From contig NSGV01000001.1 in assembly GCA_002300355.1 (NCBI GenBank), positions 682,001-746,000 on the forward strand: 64,000 nt of DNA, given 5' to 3'. The position numbers and the translations under genes are program-made. The DNA is from Streptomyces sp. TLI_235. Its GTDB lineage: Bacteria; Actinomycetota; Actinomycetes; Streptomycetales; Streptomycetaceae. The first letter of the stretch is position 1; each line of letters begins with the position of its first letter. The notes beneath the pieces are model-generated. The model worked only from the letters and a program-made list of their open reading frames with translations. It ran no database searches and had not been told where the DNA came from. Shown piece after piece: positions 22,575 to 34,641 of the stretch.

Positions 22575-23387
22575 TCAGGCCGCCGGCGAGGGCTTGAGGA
22601 CGACGAAGTCCGCGCCGTTGGGGTCCACGCAGACCGCGAGGCGGCCGACGCCGGGGGCGTCCTCGGGCTCCATCTGGAGGCTGCCGCCGTTGGCGGTGAC
22701 CTTCGCGGCGGCGTCGTCGGCGTCCTCGACGGCGAACACCGGGTGCCAGTACGGCTTGCCGCCGGTGAGCACCAGGTGCTCCGGGGGCAGCTGCATCAGG
22801 CCGCCCTGCATCCGCTCCTGCGGGAGGCCGGCGGGGGTGATCAGCCAGTAGGTGCCCTCCATGCCGCCGGGCAGCGGCATGGCCCCGAACTGCCAGCCGA
22901 AGAGCTCGCCGTAGAACTCGCGGGCGGCGGACGCGTCGGTGGTGTAGAGCTCGGTCCAGTTCAGGCTGACCGGGTCGTCGACCTGCTCCACGCCGGGATC
23001 GCCGATCGGCTGCCAGACGGCGAACTGGCCGCCGAGCGGATCGGAGAACTGGGCCATCCGACCCTCCTCGCCCGCGCCCATCGGGGGCACCCGGACGGTG
23101 CCGCCGAGCCGCTGCACGGCCTCGGCGGTGGCGTCGACGTCGGTGGTCTTGAAATAGAGCATCCAGGCGGAGCGGGCGCCCTCCTCGGTGAGGGGCCCGA
23201 TGCCGGCGACGGTCTTGCCGTTGTGGCGGAAGGCCCGGAAGTCGCCGGCCTCCTCGCCGAAGGACTTGGTCTCCCAGCCGAGAACGGCGCCGTAGAAGTC
23301 GGCGGTCGCGGCGACGTCGGGGGCGCCGAGGTCGAGCCAGCAGGGGGAACCGGGTACGAAGTCGGTAGTGATCACGTCTTCTCCCAT
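22575..23387 (-). CDS. VOC-family protein with two domains
   Basis: 270 residues with two tandem VOC domains: the first starts VPGSPCWLDLGAPDVAATAD, the second DPVSLNWTELYTTDASAARE. This matches the two-domain 27-kDa-antigen-like glyoxalase family of actinobacteria. I took the ATG at 23387 (MGEDVITTDF); the residues upstream are low complexity. Such proteins bind or modify small molecules; the role is unknown. Confidence 0.9.
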   Translation of the reverse strand: MGEDVITTDFVPGSPCWLDLGAPDVAATADFYGAVLGWETKSFGEEAGDFRAFRHNGKTVAGIGPLTEEGARSAWMLYFKTTDVDATAEAVQRLGGTVRVPPMGAGEEGRMAQFSDPLGGQFAVWQPIGDPGVEQVDDPVSLNWTELYTTDASAAREFYGELFGWQFGAMPLPGGMEGTYWLITPAGLPQERMQGGLMQLPPEHLVLTGGKPYWHPVFAVEDADDAAAKVTANGGSLQMEPEDAPGVGRLAVCVDPNGADFVVLKPSPAA

Positions 23388-23468
23388 CGAGAGTGCCACC
23401 GCGGCCCAGCCTGGCAGCGGCCGGCGCCGCCCGCCCGTCGGCACACCGCCCGCCACTGCGTCCGAACG

Positions 23469-26203: not shown

Positions 26204-26703
26204 GACCTCCTCGTGTCCCTCCGGCGGTCGGATGACGGCGGGGCGGGACGACCGCATGTCCGGCACGGCGAAGCTGCCCAGGACCTACGGGCGCGGGCGC
26301 AGTTCCTGGACGTGCGCATGCAAGCCCCCGCCAGAGGGCAAAGGGCCTGGTTCAGGAGCTGTTCCAGGTCGGCGTCCTCGTCGCGCAGCCAGTGGGCATC
26401 GGCGGCACCCAGGGCGGCACGGGCAAGGACCGGCGGGCGCCATGGCGTCCACCGGTGCCGTAGCGCTCCGCCGCACGGTCGGCGATGACGGGCCGCCAGG
26501 CGGCGTAGCGCAGCGTGGAGAGCTCCTACCGTTCCGAGGCGGCGAGGATGAGTGCCCTGGGTGGCACCTGCCCTGAGCTGGTGGACCCTGAGAAATGGGC
26601 GGGACCAGGCCTGTTGACGCGCCTGGTCCAACAATCGCGACTTCAGCTCTGTCGGACTCCTGTGCGATCGTGGACGCGCATGCAGTGACGGGGGAGGATC
26701 AGC
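26204..26703. other. Stretch without a recognisable gene
   Basis: Open frames here lack recognisable domains and consistent codon bias; I suspect degraded sequence. The right end should contain the promoter of the RHS locus, with GGGGGAGG just before the ATG at 26704. Confidence 0.45.
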
Positions 26704-29700
26704 ATGGCGATCGAGTTGCCCGATGAGGTGGAGTCGTTCCTGGCGTTCATCGGGATCAGGTGGCCGTCGGTGAACGAGGACAAGGTCCGCGAGTTCGCCG
26801 ACCACGTCCGGGAGTTCGCCGACAGGGTGGACGAGGCGCACCGGGAGTCGACGGCGACGATCAAGGCGCTGGGTGAGGCTTACGAGGGGGCCTCCTACGA
26901 GGCGCTGCTGACGAAGTGGGCGTCGCTGTCGGACAGTCACATGAACGAACTACCTCACCAGCGTCTACAACTCCTCCGGCAAGCCGATGCGCTTCGCCAA
27001 CGATGCCAGCGGCCGGATGCTCTCCTGGACCGACCGCAACAACTCCCAGTACGTCTACAGCTACGACGCCCACGACCGGGTCGTCGACGAGGGCGGCACC
27101 GACGGCGCCCTGCGCTTCCACTTCACCTACGGCGACCCGGACCCCGCCACCGGCCTGCGCACCCACACCGAGACCAACGCGCTCGGCCACACCACCAGTT
27201 ACCTGGTCAACGAGCACGCCCAGATCACCGCGATCACCGACCCGCTCGGCCACACCACCCACTACGAACGCGACCCCTACGATCGGCTCCTCGCCGAGAC
27301 CGATCCCCTCGGCCGCACCACCCGCTACGCGTACGACGGCGCCGGCGACCTCACCACCATCACCCGCCCCGACGGCGAACAAGCCACGGTCACCTACGCC
27401 GCGGGGCTGAGCCTGCCCGAGACCGTCACCGAACCCGGCGGCGCCACCTGGCACCACGTCTACGACCGATCCGGCCGGCTGACGACCTTCACCGATCCGA
27501 CCGGTGCCATTACCCGTTACACCTACGACGAACTCGGCCATCTCGCTTCCGTTACCAATGCGCTCGGCAGCACGACCGTGGTCCGTTGCAGTCCGGCAGG
27601 CCTGCCGATGGAAGTCACTGATCCAGCAGCCGCCACGACGCGCTTTCAGCACGATGCCTTCGGGCACACGACGGCGGTCAGCGGACCAATGGGGGATGTA
27701 ACCCGCCACACGTGGACAGCGGAGGGATACCCGCTGAACCGTGTTGCCGCGGACGGCACCACGGAGTCGTGGGCATACGACGGCGAAGGAAACCTACTGA
27801 CCCACACCGACCAGATCGGGCAGGTCAGTACGTTCGAGTACACGCATTTCGAGACCCCCGCTGCGGCGATTGGTCCTGACGGTGCCCGGTACGCCTACAC
27901 CTACGACGCCAATATGCAACTAGTGTCGGCCATCAACCCTCTTGGTCAGCAGTGGGAATACACCTACGATGCGGCTGGCAGGCTGGTCGAGGAGCGGGAC
28001 TTCGATGGCCGGAGCGTCAGCTACCGACTGGACCCAGCCGGTCAGGTGATTGCTCGTGTCAACCCGCTCGGGCAGGAGGTCCAATACACTTACGACCTGC
28101 TCGGGCGTGTTGCGGCTAAGAGCGTCGGAGGCGATGTTACTTCCTATGTCTACGACGATGCCGGATACCTGATCCGGGCCATCGGTCCGGACGCGGAGGT
28201 GGTCCGAACCGTTGATGCGCTGGGTAACCTGCTCACGGAGTCGGTCAACGGACGTACACTCGTTCAGGTCCGCGATCCGCTGGGACGGCGAGTCCAGCGC
28301 ACCACACCTGGTGGGCACATCAGTACCTGGACGTATGACGCCGCCGGTCGGCCGGCGGTCTTGGGTACCAGCGGCGGCGACCTCAGATTCACTTTCGACC
28401 TCCTTGGACGCGAGCAGCACCGTGCATATGGCGACCGCCTGAGCCTGACCAGTTCATGGGATGCCCGATTCCACCTGACCGGCCAGACCCTGAGTACGAC
28501 GGGACCGGGCCATTCCTCCGCTCTCCAAGACCGCAGGTACAGCTACCGTGCCGACGGTAATCTGATGGCCGTCGAAGACATTCTGTCGGGCCGGCGCACC
28601 TTCGATCTCGACATGGCTAACCGTGTCACCCGGGTCCAGGCAGAAGACTGGACCGAGACATACACATACGATGAGGCGGGCAACCTCACCACTGCTCAAT
28701 GGCCGGCCACCAGTGCCACCGAGGCCGCAATTGGGGTTCGGACCTACGGCGGCACTCAGCTCATCTCGGCCGGCCGCGTCCGCTATGAGTACGACGCGGC
28801 CGGCCGCATCACCCTTCGACAGAAGACCCGACTGTCCAGGAAGCCGGAAACCTGGCGGTATTCATGGGACATCGAAGGCCGAATCAGTAGCGTCATCACT
28901 CCTGACGGGACGGAATGGCGCTACCTATACGATCCGTTCGGCCGTCGAATAGCCAAACAGCGGCTCGGAACTGACGGCGTCACAATCGAAGAGCAGACCG
29001 ACTTCACCTGGGACGGCCCCGCCCTGGCTGAACAGGCGACACGTGCGCCGTACTTGCCCGGCCTGCACACAATCAGCTGGGATTACCACGAGCTGCATCC
29101 GATCACTCAAAGCGAGACGATCACCACCCCGGCCGGCGATGATACGCAGGAACGAATCGACCGCAGATTTTTCGCCGTCGTCACCGATCTGGTCGGCTCT
29201 CCGGCCGAACTTGTCGACCTTGATACAGGTGACATCGCCTGGCATGCGACCACCACTGTCTGGGGCAATACCACGTGGTCCAGCGCCAGCAATGGTTACA
29301 CGCCGCTACGATTCCCGGGGCAGTACTTCGACCCGGAATCTCGCCTGCACTACAATGTCAATCGCTACTATGATCCTGAAACTGCGCGGTACGCCAGCCC
29401 GGATCCCCTTGGTCTTGCGCCGGCCCCAAATCCGGTAGCCTACGTTCACAACCCGCACACGTGGTCCGATCCTTTGGGGTTGTCCCCGCATCAGCACGAT
29501 GACCTTCTCAGGGAAGTCAAGATCGTGGCGGATAAGAATACAAAGGTCACTCCGTCGAAAATGCGGCCCGTGGCTTCGGAGGGACTCAAGCTTCCCAATG
29601 GAACGATTTGGACGAGCCCTAGCATCAGAGGGGCTGCACCCGTCCTCCATCCTGACGTGCAAGCTCTTGTGGACGGCGTTCCGATGGACAAGCGCGGACG

Positions 29701-29905
29701 AGGCCACGGCATGTGCGGTCTTCCCGTACTTCTGTCCCGAGCCCTGGACTCCAATATCGATCCGACGGGCTCTGCGGCGGCCGCGATGATCATTCGCAGT
29801 ACTACGGAGCACGAGAAGCACGGTCGGCCGATCGGTCCGTGTTCGAGCTGCAGGCCATTGAGCGAGCATTATAAGCTGGACTTCATAACGGATGACGGGA
29901 TTTGA
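26704..29905 (+). pseudogene. RHS-repeat polymorphic toxin, internally deleted and frameshifted
   Basis: The start (ATG 26704) encodes an 80-residue WXG100-like export domain typical of Streptomyces RHS toxins (GIRWPSVNEDKVREFADHVR, then EAYEGASYEALLTKWASLSD). Near 26945 the sequence jumps in another frame into the middle of an RHS core (NYLTSVYNSSGKPMRFANDA), so several hundred residues are deleted. The rest is one open frame of more than 970 residues with over twenty YD repeats, the conserved RHS end (RYYDPETARYASPDPLGL, ending near 29485) and a C-terminal toxin tip. The tip resembles the YwqJ-like deaminase family: HGMCGLPVLLSRAL near 29705 and PCSSC at 29836. The usual C-A-E is C-G-L here, so the catalytic Glu is missing. 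The second half is visibly less GC-rich than its surroundings, suggesting transfer. Confidence 0.85.
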
Positions 29906-29911
29906 ACGCAA

Positions 29912-30352
29912 ATGTCGAGATTCTCCGATGAGACCGAGCGCGAGCTTCTGGCTGCGGGCTGGCGACCCGGGCGGAAGGTCGATGTTCTGCCCTGGCGCCG
30001 CAGGCTCGAATCTTCCGGCTTCCACATGCATGCCGCAGCCGAGCTGTTTCTATCCGAGTTCGGCGGCCTCACGGTCGATGTCGATGGTCCGGGGATCTCG
30101 TGTGCGCGTGTTCCGTTCGAGTTGGATCCCTCTCTTGCGGACGGCGAGGACGACAGATTTTCAGAATGGGGGCAGGAGGTTGGCGAGGAAATCTTCCCGA
30201 TCGGCGAGATGGATGGAGGGAGATATTTTCTCGGAATTTCATCCTCTTCGGAGATTTACATCGTCGCTGACTGGCTCGCGTCGCTCGGAGTAGGCGTCGA
30301 GGCTCTGGAGAGGCTGGTTCGGGGAATTGCAGCCGATACCGTCTGCCAGTAA
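29912..30352 (+). CDS. SUKH-3 family immunity protein
   Basis: A 146-residue SUKH-superfamily protein. The N-terminus (FSDETERELLAAGWRPGRKV), AAAELFLSEFGGLTVDV, FPIGEMDGGRYFLGIS and the end IYIVADWLASLGVGVEALER match SUKH-3 immunity proteins, which neutralise polymorphic nucleic-acid-acting toxins including YwqJ-type deaminases. It starts 6 bases after the toxin stop, the standard toxin-immunity order, and shares the lower GC of the toxin tip. It is intact, unlike its partner. It should act in the cytoplasm by direct binding. Confidence 0.88.
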   Translation: MSRFSDETERELLAAGWRPGRKVDVLPWRRRLESSGFHMHAAAELFLSEFGGLTVDVDGPGISCARVPFELDPSLADGEDDRFSEWGQEVGEEIFPIGEMDGGRYFLGISSSSEIYIVADWLASLGVGVEALERLVRGIAADTVCQ

Positions 30353-30635: not shown

Positions 30636-32123
<1,488 letters not shown>

Positions 32124-32216
32124 GGGCTACCACCTTGTGCGGGGGGACGGCCCGGCGGCCGCCGTGGGGGGCGGCCGCCGGGGACGGAAGGTGATGGTGC
32201 GTCTGGTGCCGGTGGG

Positions 32217-33233
32217 TCAGGAGAGAGCGGGGATGACGCTCTTGCCGTAGGCGTCGATGGTGGGCTCGATGGCGTCGTGCATGGCGTACACGGCGAACTG
32301 GTCGACGCCCAGGGCGCGGAGCTGTCCGAGCTTGGCGAGCTGCCGTTCGGGGGTGCCGATCAGGCAGAACCGGTCGACGATCTCGTCGGGGACGAAGGCG
32401 GTGTCCGGGTTCCCGGCCCGGCCGTGGTGGCTGTAGTCGTAGCCGTGGCGGTCCTTGATGTAGGCGGTGAGCTCCTCCGGGACCATCGAGGAGTGCTCGC
32501 CGTAACGGGAGACGAGGTCGGCGACGTGGTTGCCGACCATGCCGCCGAACCAGCGGCACTGCTCCCGGGCGTGCGCCAGCGCCTCGGGCGAGTCGTCGGC
32601 GGTGACGTAGGCGGGGGCGGCGACGCAGACGGTGACCTCGGACGGGTCGCGGCCCGCCTCGACGGCGGAGTCGCGGACGGCCTTGACCATCCACTCGGTG
32701 AGGTAGGGGTCGGCGAGCTGCAGGATGAAGCCGTCCGCGACCTGCCCGGTGAGGTGCAGCGCCTTGGGGCCGTAGGCGCCCATCCAGACCGGCAACCGGG
32801 CGCCCTCCTTGACCCAGGGGAGGTGGATGTCGGTGCCGTCGACCTCGACGGTGCGGCCCTCGGCGAGCCCGCGGATGGCGTGGATCGCCTCGCCGAGCAT
32901 GCCGAGCCCGGCGGGGCGGCGGCCGGCGACCCGCTGCGCCGAGTCGCCGCGGCCGATGCCGCACACGGTGCGGTTGCCGTACATGTCGTTGAGGGTGGCG
33001 AAGAGCGAGGCGGTGACCTCCCAGGTGCGGGTGGCGGGGTTGGTCACCATCGGGCCGACGATCATGCGCTCGGTCTCGGCGAGGATGCGGCTGTAGATGA
33101 CGAAGGGCTCCTGCCAGAGCACGACGGAGTCGAACGTCCACCCGTGGGTGAAGCCGGCCGCCTCGGCGCGCTTCATCCGGTCGATGAGCAGTTGGGCGGG
33201 CGGGTCGGTCTGGAGAACGAGTCCGATGTCCAC
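32217..33233 (-). CDS. LLM-class F420-type oxidoreductase (TIGR03842-like)
   Basis: A 338-residue luciferase-like TIM-barrel oxidoreductase. MDIGLVLQTDPPAQLLIDRM, TFDSVVLWQEPFVIYSRIL and NRTVCGIGRGDSAQRVAGRR are those of the TIGR03842 subfamily, predicted to use coenzyme F420; ARLPVWMGAYGPKALHLTGQ holds the usual barrel strand and phosphate-binding glycine. It sits 7 bases after the dihydropyrimidinase gene. In related operons this enzyme accompanies hydantoinases, so I infer a redox step on a cyclic ureide or its product; the actual reaction is not established. RutA, which opens the uracil ring, is also an LLM member but is FMN-dependent. Confidence 0.9.
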   Translation of the reverse strand: MDIGLVLQTDPPAQLLIDRMKRAEAAGFTHGWTFDSVVLWQEPFVIYSRILAETERMIVGPMVTNPATRTWEVTASLFATLNDMYGNRTVCGIGRGDSAQRVAGRRPAGLGMLGEAIHAIRGLAEGRTVEVDGTDIHLPWVKEGARLPVWMGAYGPKALHLTGQVADGFILQLADPYLTEWMVKAVRDSAVEAGRDPSEVTVCVAAPAYVTADDSPEALAHAREQCRWFGGMVGNHVADLVSRYGEHSSMVPEELTAYIKDRHGYDYSHHGRAGNPDTAFVPDEIVDRFCLIGTPERQLAKLGQLRALGVDQFAVYAMHDAIEPTIDAYGKSVIPALS

Positions 33234-33240
33234 GGGGCTC

Positions 33241-34641
33241 CTAGCGGTCGAGGTACTGACAGGTGGCGCGCGGCTGGTAGCGGCCGTGGCCTGCGCGTCC
33301 GAGGTAGTTGTCGCCGTCGACCACGACGGTGCCGCGGGAGAGCACGGTGCGCACCTTGCCGGTGATCCGTTTGCCCTCGTACGCCGAGTAGTCGACGTTC
33401 ATGTGGTGGGTCTCGGCGGAGATCGTCTGCACCGCGTTCGGGTCGTAGACCACGATGTCGGCGTCGGCGCCGGGCGCGACGGTGCCCTTCTTCGGGTAGA
33501 GGCCGAACATCCGGGCGGGGGTGGCGCAGGCGATCTCGATCCAGCGGCGGCGGGTGATGTGCCCGTCGACGACCGCCTGGTGGAGCAGGTCCATCCGGTT
33601 CTCCACGCCGGGCAGGCCGTTGGGGATCTTGGAGAAGTCGCCGCGGCCGAGTTCCTTCTGGCCGACGAAGCAGAACGGGCAGTGGTCGGTGGAGACCACC
33701 TGGAGGTCGTTGGTCCGCAGGCCCTTCCAGAGCTCGGCCTGGTGCTCCCTGGGCCGCAGCGGGGTGGAGCAGACGTACTTGGCACCCTCGAAGCCGGGCT
33801 CGGCGAGGTTGTCGGTGGAGAGGAAGAGGTACTGCGGGCACGTCTCGCCGAAGACCGGCAGGCCCTGGTCGCGGGCGCCGGCGATCTCGGCGACCGCGGA
33901 GGCGGCGGAGACGTGCACCACGTACAGCGGTGAGCCGGCGACCTGGGCGAGCTTGATCGCCCGGTGGGTGGCCTCGGCCTCCAGCAGTTCGCGGCGGACC
34001 TCGCCGTGGTAGCGGGGGTCGGTCCTGCCGGCGGCGAGGGCCTGCTCGACGAGGACGTCGATGGCGATGCCGTTCTCGGCGTGCATCATGATCAGGCCGC
34101 CGTTGTCGGCGCCGCGCTGCATGGCCCGAAGGATCTTGCCGTCGTCGCTGTAGAAGACGCCGGGGTAGGCCATGAACAGCTTGAAGGAGGTGACGCCCTC
34201 CCCCACCAGCAGGTCCATCTCCTTGAGGCTGGCGTCGTTGACGTCGCCGAGGATCATGTGGAAGCCGTAGTCGATCGCGCAGTTGCCCTCGGCCTTGGCG
34301 TGCCAGGCGTCCAGGCCCTCGCGCAGCGAGGCGCCGACGGACTGGACGGCGAAGTCGACGATCGTGGTGGTGCCGCCCCAGGCCGCGGCCCGGGTGCCGG
34401 TCTCGAAGGTGTCGGAGGCGAAGGTGCCGCCGAAGGGCAGCTCCATGTGGGTGTGGGCGTCGACGCCGCCGGGGATCACGTACATCCCGGCCGCGTCGAT
34501 CACCCGGTCGGCCGTCCAGTCGGCGGCGCTGCTGCCGGGCGCGGCGAGGGCGACGATCTTCTCGTCCTCGATCAGCACGTCGGCGGCGATTTCCTCGGCG
34601 GCGGTGATCACCAGGCCGCCGCGGATCACGGTACGGGTCAC
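33241..34641 (-). CDS. Dihydropyrimidinase / D-hydantoinase
   Basis: A 466-residue cyclic amidohydrolase that opens dihydropyrimidine or hydantoin rings to N-carbamoyl products. All metal-site residues are visible: His63 and His65 (DAHTHMELPFGG), carboxylated Lys154 (TSFKLFMAYPG), His187 (MMHAEN), His243 (VVHVSAASA) and Asp319 (STDHCPFCF). The GTG start at 34641 follows GAGGAG. It lies 14 bases downstream of the nitrilase-type gene, which would hydrolyse the carbamoyl product. Cytoplasmic. The symbol hydA is used for some homologues but is ambiguous, so I leave it out. Confidence 0.95.
   Translation of the reverse strand: MTRTVIRGGLVITAAEEIAADVLIEDEKIVALAAPGSSAADWTADRVIDAAGMYVIPGGVDAHTHMELPFGGTFASDTFETGTRAAAWGGTTTIVDFAVQSVGASLREGLDAWHAKAEGNCAIDYGFHMILGDVNDASLKEMDLLVGEGVTSFKLFMAYPGVFYSDDGKILRAMQRGADNGGLIMMHAENGIAIDVLVEQALAAGRTDPRYHGEVRRELLEAEATHRAIKLAQVAGSPLYVVHVSAASAVAEIAGARDQGLPVFGETCPQYLFLSTDNLAEPGFEGAKYVCSTPLRPREHQAELWKGLRTNDLQVVSTDHCPFCFVGQKELGRGDFSKIPNGLPGVENRMDLLHQAVVDGHITRRRWIEIACATPARMFGLYPKKGTVAPGADADIVVYDPNAVQTISAETHHMNVDYSAYEGKRITGKVRTVLSRGTVVVDGDNYLGRAGHGRYQPRATCQYLDR

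What the first reader, a model, noticed from the sequence alone, without database searches (positions are those of the whole stretch)
26704..30352. RHS toxin twice disarmed but immunity gene intact
The export domain is fused by an internal deletion, out of frame, to the middle of the RHS core near 26945. In addition the YwqJ-like deaminase tip has C-G-L where family members have C-A-E, so the catalytic Glu is lost while the PCSSC metal motif stays. The SUKH-3 gene directly after it looks intact. This could be a decaying toxin kept only as an immunity reservoir, or a silent cassette for recombination.
Basis: partly seen in the sequence, partly recalled or inferred. Interest (0 to 1): 0.7.

Follow-up and report, generated by a model that had tools for sequence, protein, structure and literature searches.

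The report
Silenced toxin gene with moved glutamate
In a Kitasatospora bacterium a stretch of about 1.4 kb that related loci keep is missing across the ends of two neighbouring genes, so a bacterial toxin would no longer be made or exported, while its likely immunity gene is intact and its toxin tip belongs to a group of predicted enzymes in which every member examined lacks the usual glutamate and carries one at another site, where it is predicted to do the same job.

Summary
The frame-shifted junction, the C-G-L motif, the PCSSC motif and the intact SUKH-3 gene are all there. The junction is not inside one gene: close relatives have two genes, a WXG export partner and a separate RHS toxin, and the window lacks about 1.38 kb spanning their boundary. 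A search found no copy of the missing RHS start elsewhere in this genome.

The second 'disarming' does not. C-G-L (or C-G-I) is the rule in a whole subfamily of tips: all 24 distinct members with the site covered have Glu at one place in the first strand, while all 42 C-x-E rows have Ala, Gly or Ser there. Glu33 is one of eight invariant columns, with the three metal cysteines. The tip folds confidently as a deaminase. I read this as a catalytic Glu moved once to another element; the geometry was not measured.

A SUKH-3 frame follows 13 of 15 such tips and is intact in 3 of the 4 loci whose toxin looks damaged, so a leftover immunity gene is plausible. A silent cassette lacks a recipient that my search could find in this genome. 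Reads could not be examined.

The parts
26704..26950 (+). 5' third of a WXG100-like export partner gene, cut after about codon 82
   Evidence: PF25547 28.2 bits against cut-off 27; 94% identical to the WXG gene of L121; the whole relative scores 54.1 bits
26942..26952 (.). deletion junction; TGA at 26942-26944 closes the RHS frame; left and right homology to relatives meet at about 26949-26951
26945..29482 (+). RHS core without its first ~297 codons (DUF6531 part absent); first ATG 26987
   Evidence: RHS_repeat 264.5 bits, Rhs_assc_core 77.0 against 32.5, scored on 26945-29902; the K. cathayae gene starts ~297 residues earlier
29483..29905 (+). toxin tip, YwqJ-type deaminase fold, C-G-L variant
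29579..29581 (+). codon of Glu33, the predicted relocated catalytic glutamate
   Evidence: invariant in 21 of 21 aligned distinct C-G-[LI] tips
29705..29722 (+). H-G-x-C-G-L motif (His75, metal Cys78, Leu80 where C-x-E relatives have Glu)
29837..29851 (+). PCSSC metal motif
29912..30352 (+). intact SUKH-3 immunity gene
   Evidence: PF14433 87.1 bits; 70% identical to the gene after the whole relative's tip in G007

Best explanation
This is a WXG-RHS-SUKH-3 island in which about 1.38 kb that 12 related loci keep is missing across the WXG/RHS boundary, so the toxin would no longer be made or exported, leaving an intact SUKH-3 gene that likely still protects the cell and a tip whose C-G-L motif belongs to a subfamily with a predicted relocated catalytic Glu. 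Shown: the WXG frame runs into RHS sequence in the wrong frame and ends at 27621; the RHS frame keeps no start codon before 26987; a search found the missing RHS start nowhere else in the genome; C-G-[LI] and Glu33 occur together in every relative in which both could be read. Inferred: a deletion at a few matching bases removed the stretch; Glu33 from strand 1 takes the place of the helix Glu that C-x-E deaminases use to activate the zinc-bound water; SUKH-3 binds the tip of relatives that still make the toxin.
For: Deletion: distance between the joined points 1349-1397 nt in the 12 of 81 loci with a close WXG match, about -2 in the window (from the coordinates); the orthologous locus L121/G049 matches the window at 92% before the junction and at 89-93% for the first 300 nt after it, consistent with one vertical locus on both sides; missing module: no match in G000 at E 1e-10, 41 of 70 genomes positive. 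Glu: 22 of 22 C-G-[LI] rows with the site covered have Glu33 and 42 of 42 C-x-E rows have Ala/Gly/Ser; 21 distinct, median identity 39%, eight invariant columns including Glu33, Cys78, Cys120, Cys123; three further distinct plasmid tips agree. Fold. Immunity: SUKH-3 frame after 13 of 15 C-G-type tips; intact in 3 of 4 loci whose toxin looks damaged.
Against: The Glu change happened only once on the tree (one change, branch support 86/86), so it is one coupled event and not replicated covariation. The tool gives no coordinates, so the distance from Glu33 to the metal site is unmeasured; His75 is equally invariant and could be the catalytic residue. The best Foldseek E-value is only 4.9e-3. The RHS reading frame shows no decay: no stop in 986 codons and 19 private changes at otherwise invariant columns against 12-41 in five relatives, which fits a recent event, continued use, or an assembly error. 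Two of 15 C-G-type tips (L017, L018) have no SUKH-3 frame on their strand in the stretch held. No expression data.
Confidence: 0.68

Rival explanations
1. The C-G-[LI] subfamily is catalytically dead or does other chemistry, and Glu33 has a structural or substrate-binding role.
For: The helix Glu, which recalled deaminase mechanisms need, is missing in all members read; His75, Gly79, Pro94 and Gly96 are also invariant.
Against: All three metal cysteines are invariant; Glu33 is present exactly where the helix Glu is absent; the tips are kept with SUKH-3 genes on RHS and HINT-type carriers, also on plasmids, which a dead domain would not need.
Confidence: 0.27
2. The junction is an assembly error and the strain has the full WXG and RHS genes.
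For: No decay of the RHS frame; the shortened protein is known only from a contig of the window's own length (P0001, one contig of 5,539,073 bases); reads not available.
Against: The missing module was not found in any of the 12 contigs; the other RHS copies nearest to this one are 68% identical over 221 residues and 53% over 173, so collapse of near-identical repeats is unlikely.
Confidence: 0.13
3. The locus is a silent tip-immunity cassette kept for recombination into an active RHS gene, as in the orphan Rhs of Salmonella.
For: Precedent in PMC3967940 (abstract read); the RHS 3' part looks like an exchangeable module, with identity to 11 relatives falling at about 27400; orphan tip-SUKH cassettes without a whole carrier gene occur on plasmids L249 and L250.
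Against: No RHS start module found in this genome to recombine with.
Confidence: 0.12
4. A shortened RHS protein is still made from ATG 26987.
For: Open frame of 972 codons without decay; a database holds it as a 972-aa protein.
Against: No ribosome-binding-like sequence seen before 26987 by eye; no DUF6531 part and no whole WXG partner.
Confidence: 0.1

Closest known systems
WXG/RHS island of Kitasatospora cathayae (G007, P0003, L022)
   Same: WXG gene, RHS gene, C-G-L tip (76% identical), SUKH-3 (70% identical) in the same order
   Different: There both genes are whole (WXG frame of 242 codons, 236 from the ATG that matches the window's; RHS 1282 codons)
Orthologous locus of Kitasatospora sp. 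DSM 101779 (G049, L121)
   Same: Same chromosomal site beside a permease gene; WXG start 92% and downstream flank 91.6% identical
   Different: WXG and RHS whole; divergent core end, no C-G-L tip found in G049
YwqJ-type deaminase toxins (PF14431)
   Same: Pfam score over the cut-off, deaminase fold, metal cysteines
   Different: C-G-[LI] for C-x-E, and Glu in strand 1
Orphan Rhs toxin and orphan immunity genes (PMC3967940, PMC10539506; abstracts read)
   Same: Toxin fragment without start or export signals next to an immunity gene; immunity that could act against non-self toxins
   Different: Here no intact RHS partner was found in the genome, and the loss is a deletion that also cuts the export partner

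Membership tests
PF14431 YwqJ-like deaminase | Pfam curated score | tested here: met
   28.5 bits for the tip alone against 25.9; 23.0 when scored in the 986-aa frame
PF14431 YwqJ-like deaminase | deaminase fold | tested here: met
PF14431 YwqJ-like deaminase | metal ligands Cys and PCxxC | tested here: met
   Cys78, Cys120, Cys123 invariant
PF14431 YwqJ-like deaminase | C-x-E catalytic Glu | tested here: not met
   C-G-L; so it is filed as a variant clade, not as a canonical C-x-E deaminase
PF14431 YwqJ-like deaminase | deaminase activity | not testable with these tools
   needs an assay
RHS toxins | RHS repeats and RHS-associated core end | tested here: met
   264.5 bits; TIGR03696 77.0 against 32.5
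RHS toxins | N-terminal DUF6531 part | tested here: not met
   not among the five families listed for 26945-29902; found in P0003 at 73.9 bits
WXG100 export partners | Pfam curated score, full length | tested here: inconclusive
   28.2 against 27, but only about 82 of ~236 codons left
SUKH-3 immunity proteins | Pfam curated score over full length | tested here: met
   87.1 bits against 23, profile 1-146 of 146
SUKH-3 immunity proteins | neutralises the neighbouring toxin | not testable with these tools
   needs co-expression

The most novel reading that the evidence does not exclude
A clade of RHS and HINT-borne deaminase toxins has moved its catalytic glutamate from the C-x-E helix to the first strand of the deaminase fold, an active-site rearrangement within one family that keeps the zinc site and its immunity partner; the window's toxin is a silenced member of that clade.
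Probability: 0.58. Interest if true: 0.75.

Novelty: new variant of a known kind. Interest (0 to 1): 0.52.

Why it matters
Zinc deaminases are usually recognised, and declared dead, by their [HC]-x-E motif (general knowledge). If the Glu can come from strand 1 instead, scans that require the motif miss active toxins, and this clade would be a natural experiment in moving a catalytic residue while the metal site stays. The locus also shows how delivery can be lost while tip and immunity gene survive. Seven searches of the open-access library listed no paper whose title or abstract start reports a moved Glu in this family; of the listed papers I looked into two by passages only. The main deaminase-fold survey (Iyer 2011, recalled) was not held, so prior notice is not excluded.

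Tried and rejected
Local loss of the Glu: rejected, as the motif is subfamily-wide. Replacement of the whole RHS gene at the junction: first suspected from 69% overall identity to L121, rejected because the first 300 nt after the junction are 89-93% identical and the drop comes at about 27400, in all 11 relatives compared; GC3 falls there in the window, L121 and L120 but stays above 90% in several others. Relaxed selection in the RHS frame: not seen. Solved structures by sequence profile: only one chance match. First genome-contig scan with the tip found no relative; alignment A3 was not conserved enough for that tool, so the RHS core was used. A phylum-wide search found the C-G-type tip in 1 of 396 genomes, the window's own; an order-wide search gave 10 of 245 genomes at E 1e-9, three of which (G321, G322, G357) carry C-x-E sister tips. 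In some searches at most 10 to 16 of the first-look candidates per genome were scored, so their counts are lower bounds.

Rows dropped from the Glu count (69 rows): P0006 (has Glu33, motif cut off), P0012 and L101 (strand 1 not covered), L115 (remnant), L107 (empty through my script). P0003 is the same protein as L014, so 21 distinct C-G-[LI] rows and 42 C-x-E rows, many of these near-copies, went into. L248 equals L094 in the stretch printed, so add three distinct rows; L249 and L250 have one extra residue before the Glu and were read by eye, not in the alignment. L098 has a stop in the last residues of its match and was counted as whole. In one search several minus-strand loci were translated on the wrong strand; one search corrected this. 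In one search the printed residue counts before the RHS start are meaningless (two residues aligned at the far end); the private-change counts use 902 columns filled in all six rows. In one search the S1 query was in a wrong frame and says nothing. The SUKH-3 search looked at frames of 60 or more codons on the tip's strand only.

Full report
Setting. The window lies in a 9.25-Mb genome of 12 contigs. Two of the nameless genomes in the genus set carry contigs with exactly the length of named Kitasatospora records (G049 = NZ_JAHTIK010000001.1, Kitasatospora sp. DSM 101779; G054 = NZ_JARZAG010000004.1, Kitasatospora sp. GAS204B), and P0003, on a contig of the length of G007:C1, is named K. cathayae, so I infer the genus Kitasatospora.

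Anatomy. ORF 26704-27621 begins with a WXG100-like domain (PF25547 28.2 bits, cut-off 27) and runs into RHS sequence in the wrong frame. The RHS frame is open from 26945 to 29902; the codon before, 26942-26944, is TGA, and the first ATG is 26987. The RHS part has repeats and the core end, then a 140-residue tip (PF14431 28.5 bits against 25.9), then an intact SUKH-3 gene (87.1 bits against 23).

What is missing. In K. cathayae the same order is a WXG gene (242 codons as listed), a separate, slightly overlapping 1282-codon RHS gene with DUF6531, and SUKH-3. I compared 81 loci, L022 and the 80: 12 have a WXG match of 60-94%, and in all 12 WXG stops on its own, RHS is in another frame, and the two points joined in the window lie 1349-1397 nt apart. 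Eight more have weaker WXG matches of 36-48%; in seven of them the WXG frame runs on into the RHS. Sixty-one have no WXG match in the stretch held. So the window lacks about 1.38 kb: the last two thirds of WXG and the first ~297 codons of RHS. That RHS module (308 residues of the K. cathayae protein) has no match at E 1e-10 in the window's genome and matches in 41 of the 70 genomes searched. Relatives share only a few bases at the two break points, so a deletion at short matching bases is likely but the exact bases cannot be fixed.

Vertical locus, exchanged end. L121 is the orthologous locus: 92% identity for 26638-26948, 91.6% for 30656-34606. RHS identity is 89-93% for the first 300 nt after the junction, 83% for the next 150, and 57-74% from about 27400; in the window GC3 falls from 98 to about 70% at the same place. 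Identity falls there in all 11 relatives compared; GC3 falls in some of them only. The RHS 3' end thus looks like an exchangeable module, and its border is not the deletion junction. Beside the permease I looked in 19 of the 39 other genomes that have it: one (G049) has WXG and a close RHS at this site; G035 has only a distant RHS match (24-27%) some kilobases away; the others show neither in the stretch fetched. In G030 the permease is followed about 0.5 kb later by the gene that lies at 22575-23456 in the window.

Mechanism proposed. In C-x-E deaminases (general knowledge) the Glu shuttles protons for the zinc-bound water. I propose that in this clade Glu33 does so from strand 1. The swap with a small residue at the same site fits two carboxylates competing for one place. 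Against: it is one event, not replicated; His75 is equally invariant. The name-giver, B. subtilis YwqJ, stops growth without visible effect on chromosome or rRNA (PMC8321402, passages), so the target of the family is open. SUKH proteins are listed as partners of YwqJ deaminases in PMC3482391 (passages).

Immunity. Among the 15 C-G-type tips, whole or broken, of the window, a SUKH-3 frame follows 13 (not L017, L018); it also follows all four C-x-E sister tips. Four of the 15 look damaged: the window, G200 (tip remnant), G247 (tip in two frames), G069 (remnant). SUKH-3 is intact in the first three and broken in G069. G016 and G041 have a SUKH-3 relative (54%, 46%) but no C-G-type tip was found in them. 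So the immunity gene tends to outlast the toxin here, on few cases. Orphan Rhs fragments and protective orphan immunity have precedents (PMC3967940, PMC10539506, abstracts).

Verdict. The delivery half is cut in the assembly; the tip carries the normal motif of its own subfamily; the immunity gene is intact and plausibly useful. The deletion is ordinary gene decay; the moved Glu is the interesting part.

Noticed in passing
G000:C1:3217627-3218019: PF14431 matches occur in 388 of 394 Streptomycetaceae genomes, often in short stand-alone frames, C-P-E or C-A-E in those read; in many Kitasatospora genomes a SUKH-like frame lies beside it (e.g. G018:C1:3510348-3510797 next to 3510966-3511367). A near-universal deaminase-SUKH pair could be a domesticated system.
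   Followed up: partly
G000:C2:169779-170444 (L026:9177-10916): The nearest other RHS copy in this genome (68% identical over 221 residues) has a different tip and is cut beside a frame that looks by eye like a transposase; a second piece at C7:6137-6592 (53%) has a stop inside.
   Followed up: partly
L227:17281-18753 and L228:4328-5800 (G049): In the orthologous locus the WXG-RHS island lies between two permease copies in the same orientation, 88% identical to each other.
   Followed up: no
window 27400 (and relatives): Border of the exchangeable RHS 3' module: identity falls in all 11 relatives compared, GC3 in the window and some relatives.
   Followed up: partly
L103:1866-2852 and L104:1873-2847 (reverse strand): Two SUKH-3 domains in one open frame after C-G-E sister tips.
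   Followed up: no
L249 and L250: Orphan HINT-end-like plus C-G-L tip fragments without a whole carrier gene, directly before or overlapping SUKH-3 genes on Streptomyces plasmids.
   Followed up: no
P0006: In Kitasatospora sp. NPDC049258 the closest RHS relative (79% identical over 902 columns) ends abruptly inside the tip, likely an independent tip loss.
   Followed up: no
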